Assembly (NCBI GenBank): GCA_036320915.1
Contig: JAXBDG010000002.1
Span: 3,500,001 to 3,564,000, forward strand
Length of the DNA stretch: 64,000 nt
Direction: 5' to 3'
From: Linnemannia elongata
Lineage: Eukaryota > Mortierellomycota > Mortierellomycetes > Mortierellales > Mortierellaceae
Shown in pieces: positions 17,568 to 26,285 of this stretch. Every line of letters starts with the position of its first letter. The first letter of the stretch is position 1. A program made the position numbers and the translations under genes. The notes below the pieces were generated by a model that was not told the DNA's origin, ran no database searches, and was given only the letters and a program-made list of their open reading frames with translations.

Positions 17568-19807
17568 ATGAACAGGGAGTTCAGCTCATTCCTGCCCTCA
17601 TTCCCTCCCTCAAAGAGACTGTCGGCCCTGACCATCACCTCACCAACTCTTCTGAGCCCCAAGGGGGTCTCCAGTCCAAAAGGTTTCTCGAGCCCTGTCA
17701 TGACTCCAGAGCCCTTGCCCTCTCCTCCAACACCTATGCCGCACCTCAGTGCAAGTCGTGTCCTCTTCGAGGAGGGCCTCTACAGCGACGTTACTGTCGT
17801 CCTCCAGGTCCCTGGATCCTTCAAAAAGTCGCTCCACCTCCACTCCCGTATCCTCTCCAAGGAGAGTGAGGTCTTCTCTGCCCTTCTTGCTGGAAAGACG
17901 AATCTTGCCGACAAGGCCATCACTCTCCAGGAGGAGCGCGACAGCCAGGGGTCCCAGGTGATCGAGATTCAGTGCATGGATGCCCAAGAGCTCTATGCTT
18001 TCGAGTCCTCACTTCGTCTCCTCTACACAGGCAGCTGGTGTTCAGACCGCGATTTCCAGACAAGCTCCCTTGACGCTCGACTCCGCCGTGGGTTGGACGT
18101 CATGAGCCAGGCAGGCCGCCTCGTCCTGAAGGGCTCTACAACAGCATTGCTTCAGGAGGAGATCACACAGATGTGCCAGAGTCAGCCCGAGCTGTTGGAG
18201 AAGGTCTCTAAGTCGTTGCGAGTAGAAGACCGCGAAGATGACCAGGCGATCCTTCGGTTCGATCGAGATGCATTGCAGCAGATGTGTCGCGTTGCCGTCG
18301 TCAAGGTCGAGATCAGAGACCACTGCGAACTTGCCATTGCCCGGAACTTGTACGGGTCTAAAAAGTTCCGCGAACTCCGCATGGCCGAGGTCCAACTCTC
18401 TGAACTGCGTCCCGGGTACATCTTCCCACCAGGCGGTCAAGAGTCGATCTATCTCCTCAAGGGTGCCCCCTCCTTGCCTCTTCACCCCTGCAGAGCAACT
18501 AATGTCGAGGCCCTCCGCCACGTGGTTAACTACTATACTGCCTACAACTCCCAGCAGCCATTGAGGACCCGCGAGTTCTACGCCATCCCCAGCGACGAAG
18601 ACGATGACGATGATGACATGCGCAAGTCGACCGCCACCCTGCACGACGTGACGTTTTACAGAGTGGCCTTCTCAACAGGCTATCAATGGCTCATGGACCA
18701 AGTGATCAAGGTCAGGGCTCCCTTTGAGCTCATCATCCTCCTGCTCAAGGATGCTGTTGACGAAAACTCGGATCGAAACAACAATGTCACCTTTGGCGAG
18801 TTTGCATCGACCACAGACGGAGATGTGTACCTGCAGGGTGTCAGCTACATTGCTGATGGACTCCTTCATGCCTTCCAAGACCCTACTCTCGAATCTTTCC
18901 GCAACCCCGGTGCCTCGGGTTCGCTATTGAACATGATCTCGTATGGCATCAATTCGCTGACCGATCTGCCGCCCCTTCGCCCCCGACCAAAGTCCGTCAA
19001 TGCCGATGCGAACGCCGCTCATCATCATCAAGATTACCCTGCTCTTTCCACGTTGGTGATGGAGTTCTTCTGGCAGATCCTGGAGTTGGCCCTCAAGCGC
19101 CCGCATCACCTAGAGTTCATCCAGCTGTTGATGGATTCTATCACCAAGATCGCCCCACTATCACCTTTCGAAGTCGTCGATCGTATCGAGGAGCGTCTTG
19201 CGGAGCTTTTGGAGGAAACGCGCAAGAAGATTATGGAACAGCGCGGGGATGTTGGCGGTCAGAACGAGGACGAGGACGAGGCAGAGGACAAGAAGGTTGA
19301 CAGTGATGATGATGATGACATTGTCAGCCCAAGGGTCTCTGGAGGCAGAAGCGACGATGGATTCGCAAGCATCAAAGGAAGCTTCTCAGAAGGCCACCGT
19401 AGCGAAGTCTCCAGCCGATTTGACGACCCTGACGAGCGCCGATCGATGGTCAGCAGCGTTGTTCGGATCTCTGACCCACCAAGATCCTTGTCTGTTATTG
19501 GTACTCGCAAGGACATGGACGATGCCTCGTCCATCCAAGAGCCCGAGAACGATGATGAGGACGAGGAAGAGGAAGCCGAAGCAGAGACAGAACCCGCATG
19601 GATGAGGTATGTACAAGATTATGTAAATTCTAGCAGGGTTATGTTCGAAGATGTAACAAAGCAGCTGACCATGTCGATTTTGGTTCCTTTTGCTGCGCTT
19701 TTAGGCCAGAGTACTTGCAGCCCCTTTGTCTCCAGCTGTTGACCACTTTCCCCATGAACATCCAGTCGTCGCTGCTGTGGGCCATCCACGACCTTCAGCT
19801 CTTGTAA
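17568..19807 (+). CDS. BTB/POZ domain protein
   Basis: Exons 17568-19606 and 19705-19807 give 713 residues. The start is the ATG in CACAATGAAC. The frame is open another 300 bases upstream, but that part is a CT-rich leader that translates to Ser/Phe/Leu runs. A BTB/POZ fold spans about residues 65-190, starting FEEGLYSDVTVVL with LHLHSRILSKESEVF, and normally mediates dimerisation or Cullin-3 and repressor binding. The central 200-550 region is mixed helical without a recognised domain. An acidic disordered region (about 565-675) precedes a short conserved-looking C-terminus encoded by the last exon (PEYLQPLCLQLL). No kelch, zinc-finger or ankyrin repeats were seen, so the partner domain, and hence the role, is unknown. 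The intron has a GTATGT donor and a TTTTAG acceptor. Confidence 0.85.
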
Positions 19808-20151: not shown

Positions 20152-23100
20152 ATGGATTCATTACCAGCCTGCATTCCACCCGACGACCCGCCCAGTTCAC
20201 GACAGGACGGCGACGACGACACTCACTTCAGTAATACTGTTCTACAGGCGCAGGAGCAGGAGTTACCAGAAATCACTACCATCACAGCGGACATTACCAA
20301 TAACAAGAACAAAAGCCCCAGGCACGACCCAGAACAACCACCACCCCAACAGGACATTGTCCTCGACGAATCCACGCCCGCCCAACTCGCAGACGCGTCT
20401 CATACCCCGCAGGAGTCTCTTCTCCACAACGACAACAGCATGAACAATAACACATCCGCCTCGGCTGCCGAAACATCCTCCTCAGAAAAGCTGGCTGCCC
20501 AAGGGTCATCATCATCATTCAGACAACCACTACCCCTGTTGACTCCTCGAGACGCACCATTACCGACAGTCTCGTCTTTCAACCTTTTCCCCCAGCAACT
20601 GAAACAGCCACTCTTTGTTGCCATAGCAAGAGTCCTCGTTGTCTATGGGAATGCCTGGCAGAGCGCACCAGAATTAGTTGGTAAGAAATGAATGCCACGA
20701 AATGCATGTCTCCATGTTCACTTCTTTATTACTCCTTTTACTCATGCTGACTCACTGTCTCCCATTCTTCTTTATGTGCTTTTATTAGACGGAATACGAC
20801 TATACGAGCTTGTCACTCTCCGGTAGGCAACGGAGAAGGATGCTTGGTCAGAGGGGCGCTTGTCCGAAAATAAGACAGAATAGCATGTCGTGTGGGCGCA
20901 CCCAGTTCCTAACACTTTTTATTATTTTTAACCTCTTGCATCATCCCTTCTCCCTCCAGCGGTAATACGCCCAAAAGCACGGTTCAGGGCGCAATTTCAA
21001 CGGCACTTTCGCTCTCACACACGCTCAAGACATTCGAACCGATTGAAAAGCGGCGAGCGCAAGGAACGACATACTACCGCATGTCCCCCAAGGCATTGGA
21101 TCCAGCACTTGCACAGAAAGTACTCGATTCTGATGCAACCGAGTCCGACTCTATATCCACTACAACAAGGAAAAGTAAGTATTCATCAAGACGATGCACG
21201 CGATGCCTTCAGATATCACCAGTCGAGATATTCTAGGATAGCAAAAGGTAAAATTGTATCAGCGCTGACTGAATCCTTTTGTTTTGGGATATATGGATGA
21301 TTCGTTTAGGACAGTCAGGATCATCATCCCTAGCACGGTCTGTCATGACGAGGCCAAAGGCGCGTGTAAAAGCACCAACAACCAACACCAAACGAAAACA
21401 AAAACTTTCAAGCGACACATCGATCAAAAGCAAGAAACGGAAACCAATAAGCGGATGGGCATCGGACACCCTCAGCTCAGGAAGCTCGGACGATGACTCT
21501 ATGGTTTCAGTAGATACTGACCGCCAGACGAACGGCCGGACTCGGCGGAAATCCACAACAGACACCAGGAAAGGCTCTTCGAGTTCAAACACTAGTCGCC
21601 CAAAACCACCTGCCAGAAAGGACTCTATCCCGAACGGACTCAAGAAGCTACCCAAGGGCTACGTCTACGATACTGAGATTAATCAATCCGCTCTCATGAA
21701 TCTGTCTGTCAACCCCTCACAGACAGGAGAGTACATGCAGCATCTCAAGTAAGCCTGCAGCCTCTCTTGGAAAAAAAGCTGTTGATTAATTATTCCATGC
21801 TTTATTGCTCGTATCTCATCTATTTTTTTCTCCGCCGAAAACTAAAACTCAATTTTCTTTTACCAATGCTTAACTGCAATTTAGAGGCAAAAACGCCTTG
21901 GAAAACAACTATCCAGACCGACGAGGCGAGTTCCGCGTGGATCTTACTCAAGAGCCTTCAACATTTGCCCATGAGCAGCAGACCGGCTACACATACCCAA
22001 GGCTCCGCAACAGCCGCCGAGAGCGACTCCCCAAGGCAGATTGCGAGGACGGCTATGCCATCACGGACCTGAAACACAATGGCGCTTTTTTGGGCCGGAT
22101 GTTTTGCTTAACGGACGGTCACGGTGGCCGTGCCTGCTCTTCGTTTGTGATTGCAACGATACCCGGCGCCATGCAAGTCATTTTCGAAAAGTACAGGCCC
22201 CAGGACCTTTCCCTGCCAAATGTACAGGAGCTTCTGAGGAGCCAGATTTCCGAGGCTGTGCGACTGATCGATAAGGAGTATCTGGAGTACAAAAAGCAGC
22301 AGTATCTGCTTTACAAGGAAAAGAAGATTACACAGGACCCAGGGAGCGATGGCACGACTCTTATCGTCAACATCTTTATCGACAAGTGGATCATCTGCCT
22401 GAACCTCGGCGACTCTAGATCGCTACTGTCCAGTCGAGATGGCCTTGGACGGTGGAATGTCGAGTTTCACAGCGAGGACCATACCCCAGCGCTCGAACGA
22501 CTTGCGCTGACCATCTACGCTAACGGAGGCGAGTTTGTCACGCACGACGACAAGGTGATCCGATTCGATCCTAACCTCCGAAACGACAAGAAGCATCGCC
22601 AATCGCTCAAGGAGGCCCGGATACGAGTCAGGGACGGCGCATCGAACGAGTATGGGATCCCTTATCGGACAAAGAACGGACAGGCTGCCTCGGTCAACCT
22701 CGGAGCATGTATCGGTGACGTCCTGTACAAACTAGATCCCGCGAACCCCGTCCTGAGCTGCAAGCCTGATATCACGTTCATCGACATTTCCAACATCCAG
22801 CAAGGATTCCTTCTCATGGCCTCGGACGGACTTTGGGATTATGTCCAGAAGAACCATCATCGAACGCAAGACCAGAACTTGACTGTCAGCCAGTTTGTTG
22901 GCGACAAGGTCGATCGCGGCTGGAACCACCAGAGGATTGTCCACACACTTGCGGATCGCGAGTCTTCGGCAGGTCTCTACTCCGATTCGATTCAAGAGTA
23001 CGACGATTTCACGGCGATTCTTGTGACATTTGGCAAGCAGCAGCTTCTCAAGCAACAGCAACAAAACCAAGAGCTCGAGGAAAGGCAATTATTATTACAG

Positions 23101-23586
23101 CAGCAGCGGCTACAGGAGCAGTTTCTTTTAGAGCAGAAGTTGCGGGATGTTGAGATGATCCGACTGGAACAAGCGAACCTTCTCAGACTCGAAGCCGCGG
23201 CGAATGGGAGCGGAGACGAGACACTCTCGGATTCGTCTCTTGTCAACAACGGCGTCGTCATTTCAACGGCACACTTGGCGACATCTGCTTCAGAGGTGGA
23301 GGCGATGATTGTGGAGGAGACGATCTTGGCACCTTCTACAAGCACGGGAGATTCATCGCTTTCAGCAACAACACCATCACCCTCATCACGGTTACGGACA
23401 CAACAACAGCCCGCCAAAATGGCCCAGCTGGTTGACACGACATTGGATGAACAGTCACCTTCATCTACGGCAACTGGTTCCACAGAGTCAACAGAGGGTG
23501 ACGACGCCGGGGCGCAGAACCAAGTGTCACCGGAAGGCGCCACTATGCAGGAGAACGATCGGGATGTCGATATGTTGCCTGCTTAG
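20152..23586 (+). CDS. Winged-helix (HARE/Gds1-like) plus PP2C phosphatase fusion
   Basis: Five exons (20152-20680, 20789-20822, 20960-21174, 21310-21748, 21885-23586) sum to 2,919 nt in one frame, 972 residues. The N-terminal 140 residues are Ser/Pro/Asn-rich. About 143-228 form a winged-helix-like domain (LKQPLFVAIARVL, then DGIRLYELVTLRGNTPKSTV and TTYYRMSPK), resembling HARE-HTH or yeast Gds1 domains. A basic Ser/Lys-rich linker (about 240-400) follows. A PP2C-type Ser/Thr phosphatase fold spans about 455-790 with the metal-binding motifs LTDGHGG, LNLGDSRSLLSS, MASDGLWD and YDDFTAILV, so catalysis should be intact. The C-terminus has a Gln-rich coiled-coil-like stretch and disorder. The linker exon joins to the phosphatase exon at a clean phase-2 intron with a GTAAGC donor and TTTAG acceptor, so this is one gene rather than two. 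A chromatin- or DNA-tethered phosphatase is an inference. Confidence 0.88.
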
Positions 23587-23812: not shown

Positions 23813-25008
23813 CTATTGAGTCTTGACGGTCTTGTGCGCTGGAGCTTTGACGGATGGGATCACATAGATTGGGAGTGACACCAGCAGCATCACCAGGACC
23901 TCTACAATTTCAAGGCAGAAGAAGAAAGGGAAAGGAGAGTTAGTTGACCTGCAATAACACGACCGGTGGATATTACATGTTGGGTTTGTGTTTTCTTACC
24001 AGCAACCCAGAATCCGAGAAGAGGCGACCATTGACTGTTCCTGTCGAGGATGTTTCCATTGTCAAACAGTCTCCATGCGTTCTTGGACAGCGACTGTGAA
24101 GAGTCGTTCTTGAAATTGCTAATGTTGTATGTGGCGAACACTTGATAAAGAAAGAAAAATGAGTGTGGTGAGCTTCGGGGTGGAGTCCAAATAATTGGGC
24201 GGCAAAGGATCTTGTTTTTTCAGGTACACAATAGAACAAAGCAGACTTACGGGCAGAGATGGTGATCATGCCTTGAATGATGTAGGAGAGGCAGGAGAAG
24301 AACATGCGGGACTTGTCCCCTGCCGCCAGAAGAGTCTCGTTCTTCAGCCAGATGTATGCTGGGATGTATGCCGCCTGTTCAGAAGATCCGAACATGGTTC
24401 CCAATGTGAGTTTTCTTCTCAATAACAAATACATACACATGCATTCAAAACAAACACGAGAACCAAAAAAAAAAAAAACTTACAGGGAGAAGGACGACAC
24501 CCATGGCAAGAAGAGTAATCAACATCCTCGAGAACGCAAAATCCGTCAAATCAAATACCTTGCCCGCCCTCCAATCCTGATACCCCGAAGGGTACAAAAA
24601 CCGATTGTACCCCATCCCCAAAATCGCACAGAAACAAGTATAAGCATGGATCCAATACTTGTTCATCCCCATATATAACACGGTCTCCTCATGATGTCGA
24701 CGAATACTGCGATAGGTCACATAGTACCCAATGATTCCTAGGAGGACATTCGTGAATGCGAATACGGTAGGTAAGAGGGCATGGATTTCGTTCTTGTCAC
24801 CGAGAAGGTACATGGATTCCCAACCGGGATTGTCCCAGAGGAGATAGAGGCCTGAGGGGGCAAAGATGAGGGAGAGGAAGAGCAGGGTATAGACGAAGGA
24901 GGGGGTTGCCCAGAATTGGGATTCGGGGGTGTTTTTGAGCGTGCCAGCGGAGCAAGCTGCGAAGACTGCGCCGAAGGAGAAGCTCCAGAAGACGTCCACT
25001 TCTATCAT
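23813..25008 (-). CDS. Multi-pass membrane protein, unknown family
   Basis: Four exons (25008-24484, 24374-24251, 24140-24000, 23901-23813) sum to 879 nt, 292 residues, ending HKTVKTQ. I do not recognise the family. Hydrophobic segments fit about six or seven membrane spans: near residues 5-22, 36-57, 76-97, 118-135, 155-178, 200-218 and a last one encoded by the final exon (VLVMLLVSLPIYVI). Loops contain DNPGWESMYLLGDKN and NRFLYPSGYQDWRAG. There is no cleavable signal peptide; the first helix starts right after MIEVDVF. All introns are GT-AG and phases close perfectly. It lies convergent with the phosphatase gene, 226 bases apart. Transporter or lipid-enzyme roles are possible but unsupported. 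Confidence 0.85.
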
Positions 25009-26285
25009 TGTTGGTTGAAGGTGATGTTGTTTTTGCTAACTTGGCGTGTTGTGTTGTTTGTGTGATGGAGAGGGAAGGAGTGAGGGAGAACGGCCTTGGG
25101 GTATGTGGAGAAAAATGCTTTTGGCGTTGGGGGGGAGCAGCAGGGTTTTTATGTGAGCGTCTGATTTGTCTTTTCTTTATGGTTTGGTCGTTTTGTAATA
25201 CTTTGATCTTATCTGTCAAGAGAAAGTGAGGGAGATGGACGAACAAGGGGTGAAGAGAAGGGGTCAACGGGAAGGAAGGGGCCAACGGAAAAAAGGAAGG
25301 GGCATTTTTACAGGTAAAAAAAGCGGCGGCACGGGGAAAGGCAAGGCAGTGTGTTTGTTCAGCATGTGTTCTTGTTCGCGTGGGAGTATGCTGTAGGTGA
25401 GTGCGTAGGGGATGTAAATGGGACGCATGCAAAAGAAAAGTCCGCCCGAACCGACTCTGCTTCTCGTCGACAATCCACAAAGAAGGACGCGCTTGGTCCT
25501 CAACAGGCGTATTTAAATCATCCATAAGACCACGTCCACCTAAACAAAAGGCAGTGCGCGGGTTGGTTTTCTCTTTCTCACTCGTATCGATGAACGGCGC
25601 CAAGCAACGTTAATGAAAAAGTGACCAAGGAGTTGAATAAAAAAACCAACACTATAAGAATGTAAATACGCTGGCTCCGATCAATTGTCAGTATAAGAGC
25701 GAGGACAAACAAGAAGTACTCTGGTTTCCTTAATCATGACCCTCACAGCTGCCTACAAAACGCCCTTCACGTTCCTAGTTTCTCATCCTAACACTTTTCC
25801 CTGAACAAAAAATACTAGTGAGCAAAGCGACACGACCAAGCGATGCGGTGGTCTAAATCCCTCCGGCGGTCGACTCCTAATGAGGCTGAGTCCTCTACGA
25901 TAACATCATGAACAGACTCTCAACCTCAAAATAGATCTCCCATCACCTGGTCGAGTATGTCTTCTTCCTCTTCAGCGAAGTTGCCGCGTTGAAGGTTCCT
26001 GAATGGATTTTGGGCGAGAAGAGCGGTTGGGGGAATGTACCTTTGAATGAGAAGAGGATTGAGATTTTGATTGCTGCAGGTCGGTTTTTGACGACTGACT
26101 CTGTTGCTAGAGGATGTTGCTGTTCTAGCAGGTAATGAATGACACTTTGTAGGATGTGGAGTTGGAAGAAACACGTCGGTATTTTGTTGATGAAGTTGTA
26201 TTTTCTTATGCGAGCAATTGCTTGACGCTAATCTTTGAAGGTATGCGCAGTAGAATACATATCTAACTTGCTATTCTCGTTTTTA
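25009..26285. other. Intergenic region with possible coding remnants
   Basis: Promoter of the membrane-protein gene (GA-rich near 25200-25300), then gene-poor DNA. Around 25926-26174 both strands give readable stretches: on plus, KVPEWILGEKSGWGNVPLNE; on minus, an 82-residue open frame ending EEEEDILDQVMGDLF. Neither has a recognisable domain or a complete gene model. This may be a remnant connected to the dehydrogenase pseudogene just downstream. A GTATGC...TTTTTAG intron-like unit lies at about 26241-26286. Confidence 0.4.

What the first reader, a model, noticed from the sequence alone, without database searches (positions are those of the whole stretch)
20152..23586. Winged-helix domain fused to a PP2C phosphatase
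One continuous spliced frame links a HARE/Gds1-like winged helix (about residues 143-228) through a basic Ser/Lys linker to a catalytically intact PP2C (DGHGG, GDSR, SDGLWD). I know of no characterised phosphatase with this layout. It would place a Ser/Thr phosphatase on DNA, chromatin or a winged-helix partner.
Basis: partly seen in the sequence, partly recalled or inferred. Interest (0 to 1): 0.75.

Follow-up and report, generated by a model that had tools for sequence, protein, structure and literature searches.

The report
Winged-helix-tethered fungal PP2C phosphatase
This fungal gene joins a GDS1-type winged-helix domain, a fold that often binds DNA, to a protein phosphatase in one protein, and the same combination recurs across three large groups of early-branching fungi, so it is probably an old nuclear phosphatase that still needs a bench test.

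Summary
A five-exon gene (20152-23586, +) encodes 972 aa: disordered N-terminus, winged helix (about 138-234), Ser/Lys-rich linker with NLS-like motifs, PP2C domain with its metal ligands (about 430-787), Gln/Glu-rich tail. It is not a gene-model accident: the order winged helix then PP2C occurs in 107 of 131 named Mortierello-, Glomero- and Mucoromycotina homologues found here and in 0 of 12 chytrid-type/Neocallimastigomycota ones, and a paralogue in the same genome has the same layout with four introns at equivalent places and phases. The N-terminal domain is GDS1-like: Pfam WH_GDS1 passes its cut-off in two Glomeromycotina orthologues but not in the window protein; AlphaFold gives a winged helix; a GDS1 homologue in the same genome aligns (hhalign 97.5%) and appears to share an intron position and phase. 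Most likely it is a nuclear PPM phosphatase aimed by the winged helix. DNA binding is inferred only, and the window protein's recognition helix is poor in basic residues. Plant DNA-binding PP2Cs (DBPs) are a functional precedent. New variant of a known kind.

The parts
20152..20680 (+). exon 1: disordered Ser/Thr/Pro/Gln-rich N-terminus and first part of the winged helix (residues 1-177, codon 177 split)
   Evidence: AF2 pLDDT mostly under 50 over residues 1-120 of P0001
20789..20822 (+). exon 2: 34-nt microexon coding the middle of the winged helix (DGIRLYELVTL)
   Evidence: the paralogue has an exon of the same place and size, L011 1772-1805
20960..21174 (+). exon 3: recognition-helix region and wing strands (GNTPKSTVQGAISTALS...TTYYRM), start of linker
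   Evidence: secondary structure H193-209, E216-221, E224-229 in the P0001 model
21310..21748 (+). exon 4: Ser/Lys-rich linker with KRK and KKRK motifs, and the conserved NGLKKLPKGYVYDTEINQ segment
   Evidence: segment 371-429 is 79.7% identical to the paralogue protein P0023 against 39.2% for linker 235-370 (aligned positions)
21885..23586 (+). exon 5: PP2C (PPM) catalytic domain, residues about 430-787, then Gln/Glu-rich helical tail to residue 972
20823..20959 (+). intron 2, phase 2, in the codon before G-x-T-P; same codon and phase as the inferred intron of the GDS1 homologue in this genome
20681..20788 (+). intron 1, phase 1
21175..21309 (+). intron 3, phase 1
21749..21884 (+). intron 4, phase 2

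Best explanation
A nuclear PPM/PP2C serine/threonine phosphatase with a built-in targeting domain. The N-terminal GDS1-type winged helix docks on DNA, chromatin or a nuclear protein partner. A long flexible linker with NLS-like basic motifs brings the enzyme into the nucleus and lets the catalytic domain reach phosphoproteins near the docking site, which it dephosphorylates in a Mn/Mg-dependent way. Shown: the gene structure, the fused architecture, its conservation, the winged-helix relation to GDS1, and the conserved metal ligands. Inferred: nuclear location, catalytic activity, the docking target and the substrates. I put about 0.97 on the architecture, 0.75 on nuclear location and 0.5 on direct DNA binding.
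For: One spliced frame of 972 aa. Paralogue at C14 with the same layout and all four introns at equivalent places and phases. Winged helix (E under 1e-5), always N-terminal to PP2C, in 51 of 66 named Mortierellomycotina, 10 of 12 Glomeromycotina and 46 of 53 Mucoromycotina hits, and in 0 of 9 chytrid-type and 0 of 3 Neocallimastigomycota hits. WH_GDS1 above its cut-off in P0073 (36.5 bits) and P0076 (36.0 bits), cut-off 27. AF2 block pLDDT 75-88 over residues 141-230 of P0001 and 86-96 over 11-110 of P0073, three main helices then two strands in both. hhalign 97.5%, E 5.1e-12, to the GDS1 homologue of the same genome, with an apparently shared phase-2 intron. K[KR]x[KR] in 101 of 106 linkers against 23.0 expected from shuffles. 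Presumed metal ligands E460, D483, D720, D780 kept in 107, 108, 105 and 98 of 108 proteins; the exceptions are one Val, one Arg and 12 gaps.
Against: No transcript, localisation or activity data. The recognition helix of the window protein is nearly neutral (+1 over 19 residues), and the SSRISQHFKR stretch of the GDS1 homologue is QGAISTALSL here. Median linker net charge across the family is -1, so a basic linker is not general, although basic motifs are. The WH_GDS1 score of the window's domain is below the curated cut-off; only 2 of 24 mostly Mortierella members at E up to 10 and 10 of 40 broad members at E up to 1 match WH_GDS1. 24 of 131 named Mucoromycota-type models have no detected winged helix. 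The linkers are related sequences, so 101 of 106 are not independent events. The GDS1 intron is inferred from splice consensus only and would be about 1.8 kb long.
Confidence: 0.6

Rival explanations
1. The winged helix does not bind DNA. It is a protein-protein or dimerisation module that recruits substrates or regulates the phosphatase, for instance by docking on the PP2C domain or its conserved NGLKKLPKGYVYDTEINQ segment.
For: The recognition helix is nearly uncharged in the window protein. Where the GDS1 homologue has SS, the nine compared members have an invariant QG pair (Q61, G62 of alignment A6). Segment 371-429 next to the PP2C is 79.7% identical between paralogues.
Against: The whole winged helix is net +6, and some members keep Arg/Lys in or just after this helix (P0084 and P0073). 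The linker between the domains is predicted disordered (pLDDT under 50), which gives no sign of a fixed contact; interdomain confidence was not shown.
Confidence: 0.33
2. A gene-model artefact: two adjacent genes, a winged-helix protein and a PP2C, wrongly joined.
For: No RNA reads were available. 15 of 66 named Mortierellomycotina annotations have no detected winged helix.
Against: Paralogue with equivalent intron positions and phases; the fused order in 107 named proteins; Paraglomus, Diversispora and Phycomyces proteins fused with shorter linkers, about 116-159 residues against about 196 here; 9 of the 15 models without the domain start at a Met in or just after the wing, and 3 more inside the linker, as truncated models would.
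Confidence: 0.02
3. A pseudophosphatase: the PP2C domain serves as a binding scaffold, as in TAB1, while the winged helix gives the targeting.
For: The residue four before the motif-1 Glu, which I take from recalled numbering to be the phosphate-binding Arg33 of human PPM1A, is Lys in 107 of 108 fused proteins. TAB1, a pseudophosphatase by recall, is among the structural matches, as are many active PP2Cs. One family member, P0070, has lost the Asp720 equivalent.
Against: The presumed metal ligands are kept in nearly all members, and Lys for Arg is a conservative change.
Confidence: 0.1

Closest known systems
GDS1 family winged helix (Pfam PF25318 WH_GDS1), with the wider HARE-HTH group (PF05066)
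   Same: Same domain family by profile in Diversispora and Acaulospora orthologues, hhalign 97.5% to the GDS1 homologue of this genome, and an apparently shared intron position and phase.
   Different: The GDS1 homologue at C31 has no PP2C match nearby (none of the 20 PF00481 matches lies there; its 840-aa open frame was not scanned on its own). The recognition helix differs (QGAIST against SSRISQ). The window's domain is below the Pfam cut-off.
PPM/PP2C metal-dependent Ser/Thr phosphatases (PF00481; human PPM1A/PPM1B, PPM1H, plant HAB1/TAP38)
   Different: N-terminal winged helix; Lys in place of the presumed Arg33; 14-24% identity in the structural alignments listed.
Plant DNA-binding protein phosphatases (DBP1 family)
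   Same: Works alike in principle: C-terminal PP2C, N-terminal extension that binds DNA (PMC3942490, passages).
   Different: Called plant-specific by that paper, with an extension barely conserved beyond one motif. No winged helix is mentioned in the passages I saw, and I did not compare sequences. If the present protein binds DNA, it is probably a separate invention.

Membership tests
PPM/PP2C phosphatases | PF00481 match over its curated cut-off | tested here: met
   58.6 bits against 20.3, residues 475-729
PPM/PP2C phosphatases | PP2C alpha-beta-beta-alpha fold | tested here: met
PPM/PP2C phosphatases | acidic metal ligands (E/D of motif 1, D of DGHGG, D of SDGLWD, D near the C-terminal end) | tested here: met
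   E460, D461, D483, D720 and D780 present in the window protein and conserved in the family; roles recalled from PPM1A
PPM/PP2C phosphatases | phosphate-binding Arg (PPM1A Arg33 by recall); common but not strictly defining | tested here: inconclusive
   Lys456 at this spacing, 107 of 108 fused proteins; the equivalence rests on recalled numbering
PPM/PP2C phosphatases | Mn/Mg-dependent phosphatase activity | not testable with these tools
   needs enzyme assay
GDS1 winged helix (PF25318) | profile match over its cut-off | tested here: inconclusive
   window domain 15.5 bits and Paraglomus 19.5 bits, both below 27; Diversispora 36.5 and Acaulospora 36.0, above 27
GDS1 winged helix (PF25318) | winged helix-turn-helix topology | tested here: met
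   helices 153-164, 172-181, 193-209 and strands 216-221, 224-229 in the P0001 model; same order at block pLDDT 86-96 in P0073. Predicted models only; the structure searches did not test this part because PP2C fills the lists
GDS1 winged helix (PF25318) | common ancestry with a GDS1 gene | tested here: met
   hhalign 97.5%, 39% identity over 69 columns; intron at the same codon and phase, the GDS1 one inferred from splice consensus
HARE-HTH (PF05066) | profile match over its cut-off (25.9 bits) | tested here: not met
   13.9 and 16.7 bits in P0073 and P0076; 3 of 40 members at E up to 1; no hit for the window domain. A remote relation only
Plant DBP phosphatases | DNA-binding N-terminal extension with its conserved motif | not tested
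   no DBP sequence was compared; passages of PMC3942490 only

The most novel reading that the evidence does not exclude
Mucoromycota-type fungi, including arbuscular mycorrhizal fungi, carry an ancient transcription-factor-like phosphatase: a GDS1-derived winged helix binds particular DNA or chromatin sites and delivers a PP2C that strips phosphates from the transcription machinery or histones there. It would have arisen by capture of a GDS1 winged-helix exon pair in front of a PP2C after the split from the chytrid-type lineages, independently of plant DBPs.
Probability: 0.4. Interest if true: 0.7.

Novelty: new variant of a known kind. Interest (0 to 1): 0.52.

Why it matters
PP2C phosphatases usually gain specificity from extensions or partners (general knowledge). 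A phosphatase that carries its own winged helix, kept across Mortierello-, Glomero- and Mucoromycotina, suggests direct dephosphorylation control in the nucleus of fungi that include plant symbionts. Database names ('Protein phosphatase 1L', 'PPM-type phosphatase domain-containing') hide the second domain. The claim is directly testable with a small domain, a deletion strain and DAP-seq.

Tried and rejected
Gene fusion by annotation error: rejected (paralogue, orthologues, intron phases). A winged-helix-only profile against PDB sequences gave no credible hit (2 hits up to E 10, best E 0.76, an RNA-dependent RNA polymerase). HARE-HTH as the precise family: below its cut-off.

Literature, seen as listings unless said otherwise: winged helix with PP2C or DNA-binding protein phosphatase (16 of 16 listed), PP2C with Mucoromycota or domain architecture (12 of 115 listed), Mortierella or Linnemannia with PP2C (12 of 2,618 listed), PP2C with HARE-HTH, WH_GDS1 or PF25318 (none), Rhizophagus, PP2C and winged helix (2 listed): no listed title or abstract start describes this architecture. 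A fungal phosphatase review (PMC12963243, term search) has no 'winged' or 'DNA-binding'. GDS1 (3 listed) and HARE/ASXL searches gave only the HARE passages of PMC7660087. The Aravind and Iyer HARE-HTH paper is not held; I know it only as cited there. The library holds only CC-licensed papers and the lists were capped, so absence in print is not shown.

Limits: my lineage labels come from organism names in the search listings plus recalled taxonomy, not looked up. Protein searches score only candidates sharing 5-residue words (one search scored 7993), so absence from Dikarya or other groups is not shown. The chytrid-type result depends on an HMM from 9 Mucoromycota-type sequences. In the tree long branches meet and the root is a midpoint, so one gain of the winged helix is only weakly favoured over loss. 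My first junction script for the paralogue returned no path because its look-ahead was longer than the 34-nt exon; the corrected one is.

Full report
Gene. The finding's coordinates are exact. From the ATG at 20152 to the stop at 23586, five exons with GT..AG junctions give one frame of 972 aa. Introns are 20681-20788, 20823-20959, 21175-21309 and 21749-21884. Exon 2 is a 34-nt microexon. The nearest database protein is 99% identical over residues 140-830 and is called 'Protein phosphatase 1L' of Linnemannia elongata (P0001); it is 850 aa and ends earlier in the tail.

Relation to GDS1. The window's genome holds a separate GDS1 homologue. Its winged helix aligns with the family profile at 97.5% probability, 39% identity over 69 columns. 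By splice consensus its intron splits the codon before G-A-T-P in phase 2, the same place and phase as intron 2 of the window gene, before G-N-T-P. The implied GDS1 intron is about 1.8 kb, long beside the 108-137 bases of the window gene, and has no transcript support. With the sequence match it points to common descent of the domain from a GDS1-type gene.

One gene, not two. A paralogue at contig C14 (locus L011) encodes P0023 with one mismatch, and its four introns lie at equivalent places with phases 1, 2, 1, 2, as in the window gene; the third lies in the poorly alignable linker. Between the window protein and P0023, identity is 64.9% in the winged helix, 39.2% in linker 235-370, 79.7% in segment 371-429 and 81.8% in PP2C (aligned positions).

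Distribution. Three protein searches returned 192 different proteins (counted). With an HMM from nine members, the winged helix (E under 1e-5) lies N-terminal to PP2C in 51 of 66 named Mortierellomycotina, 10 of 12 Glomeromycotina, 46 of 53 Mucoromycotina, 0 of 9 chytrid-type, 0 of 3 Neocallimastigomycota and 1 of 49 unnamed proteins. Unnamed proteins come mostly from metagenome-type sources, where calls without introns would miss it (my inference). Of the 15 Mortierella models without it, 9 begin at a Met in or just after the last strand of the wing and 3 inside the linker, as truncated models would; P0034 starts with other sequence; P0061 and P0063 are long and may truly lack it. In the PP2C tree the 44 Mucoromycota-type rows, four of them without a detected winged helix (P0061, P0063, P0081, P0082), form one side of a branch with 100/100 support against the 10 chytrid-type and Neocallimastigomycota rows. 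The root is a midpoint and long branches are flagged.

Catalytic site. In 108 proteins with both domains, the presumed metal ligands are nearly invariant: E460 107 (one Val), D461 108, D483 108, D720 105 (two gaps, one Arg), D780 98 (ten gaps). The residue four before E460, which I take by recalled numbering to be PPM1A Arg33, is Lys in 107 of 108. In 12 chytrid-type and Neocallimastigomycota proteins without a detected winged helix it is His in 8, other in 3 and a gap in 1, never Lys. This is a hallmark of the fused subfamily and the one hint of altered chemistry.

Nuclear targeting. K[KR]x[KR] occurs in 101 of 106 linkers against 23.0 expected from shuffles. One of 107 named fused proteins had a linker under 30 aa and was dropped. 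The linkers are related, so this is not 101 independent events, and the median linker net charge is -1. The window's own linker 235-370 is +15 with KRK and KKRK motifs.

Does it bind DNA? Unknown. The winged helix is +6 overall, but the recognition helix is only +1 over 19 residues, and the GDS1 SSRISQHFKR stretch is QGAISTALSL here. HARE domains are described as putative DNA-binding domains (PMC7660087, passages). I keep protein docking as a serious rival.

Precedent and novelty. Plant DBP phosphatases combine a C-terminal PP2C with a DNA-binding N-terminal extension (PMC3942490, passages), so the principle exists. A GDS1-type winged helix in this role was not seen in the listings of my searches, which were capped and cover only CC-licensed papers. 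The PF25318 + PF00481 pair is already precomputed for two proteins in the database (P0073, P0076), so automatic annotation has the pieces. I rate it a new variant of a known kind.

Noticed in passing
window 20789-20822: Exon 2 is a 34-nt microexon inside the winged-helix coding region. Several database models (P0014, P0051, P0056, P0057) have a shortened winged-helix match, probably from mis-splicing around it.
   Followed up: partly
P0061 and P0063 (Entomortierella, Gryganskiella): A further Mortierella paralogue type, grouped in the tree, is annotated at about 1000 aa without a winged helix. It may have lost the domain or be mis-annotated.
   Followed up: no
P0070 (Gamsiella): A diverged copy lacks the metal-binding Asp of SDGLWD (it reads SRGLWD): a possible pseudophosphatase that keeps the winged helix.
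   Followed up: no
window about 21630-21748, protein residues about 366-405: The segment NGLKKLPKGYVYDTEINQSALMNLS is strongly conserved in most aligned Mortierella relatives although predicted with low confidence: a possible docking or regulatory motif.
   Followed up: partly
window 17586-19742: The upstream neighbour on the same strand encodes a BTB/POZ domain protein (25.6 bits against cut-off 20.5).
   Followed up: no
window 24445-25035, minus strand: The downstream convergent open frame gives a membrane-like protein piece with a weak, sub-cut-off match to PF18179 (20.4 bits against 25), probably not meaningful.
   Followed up: no
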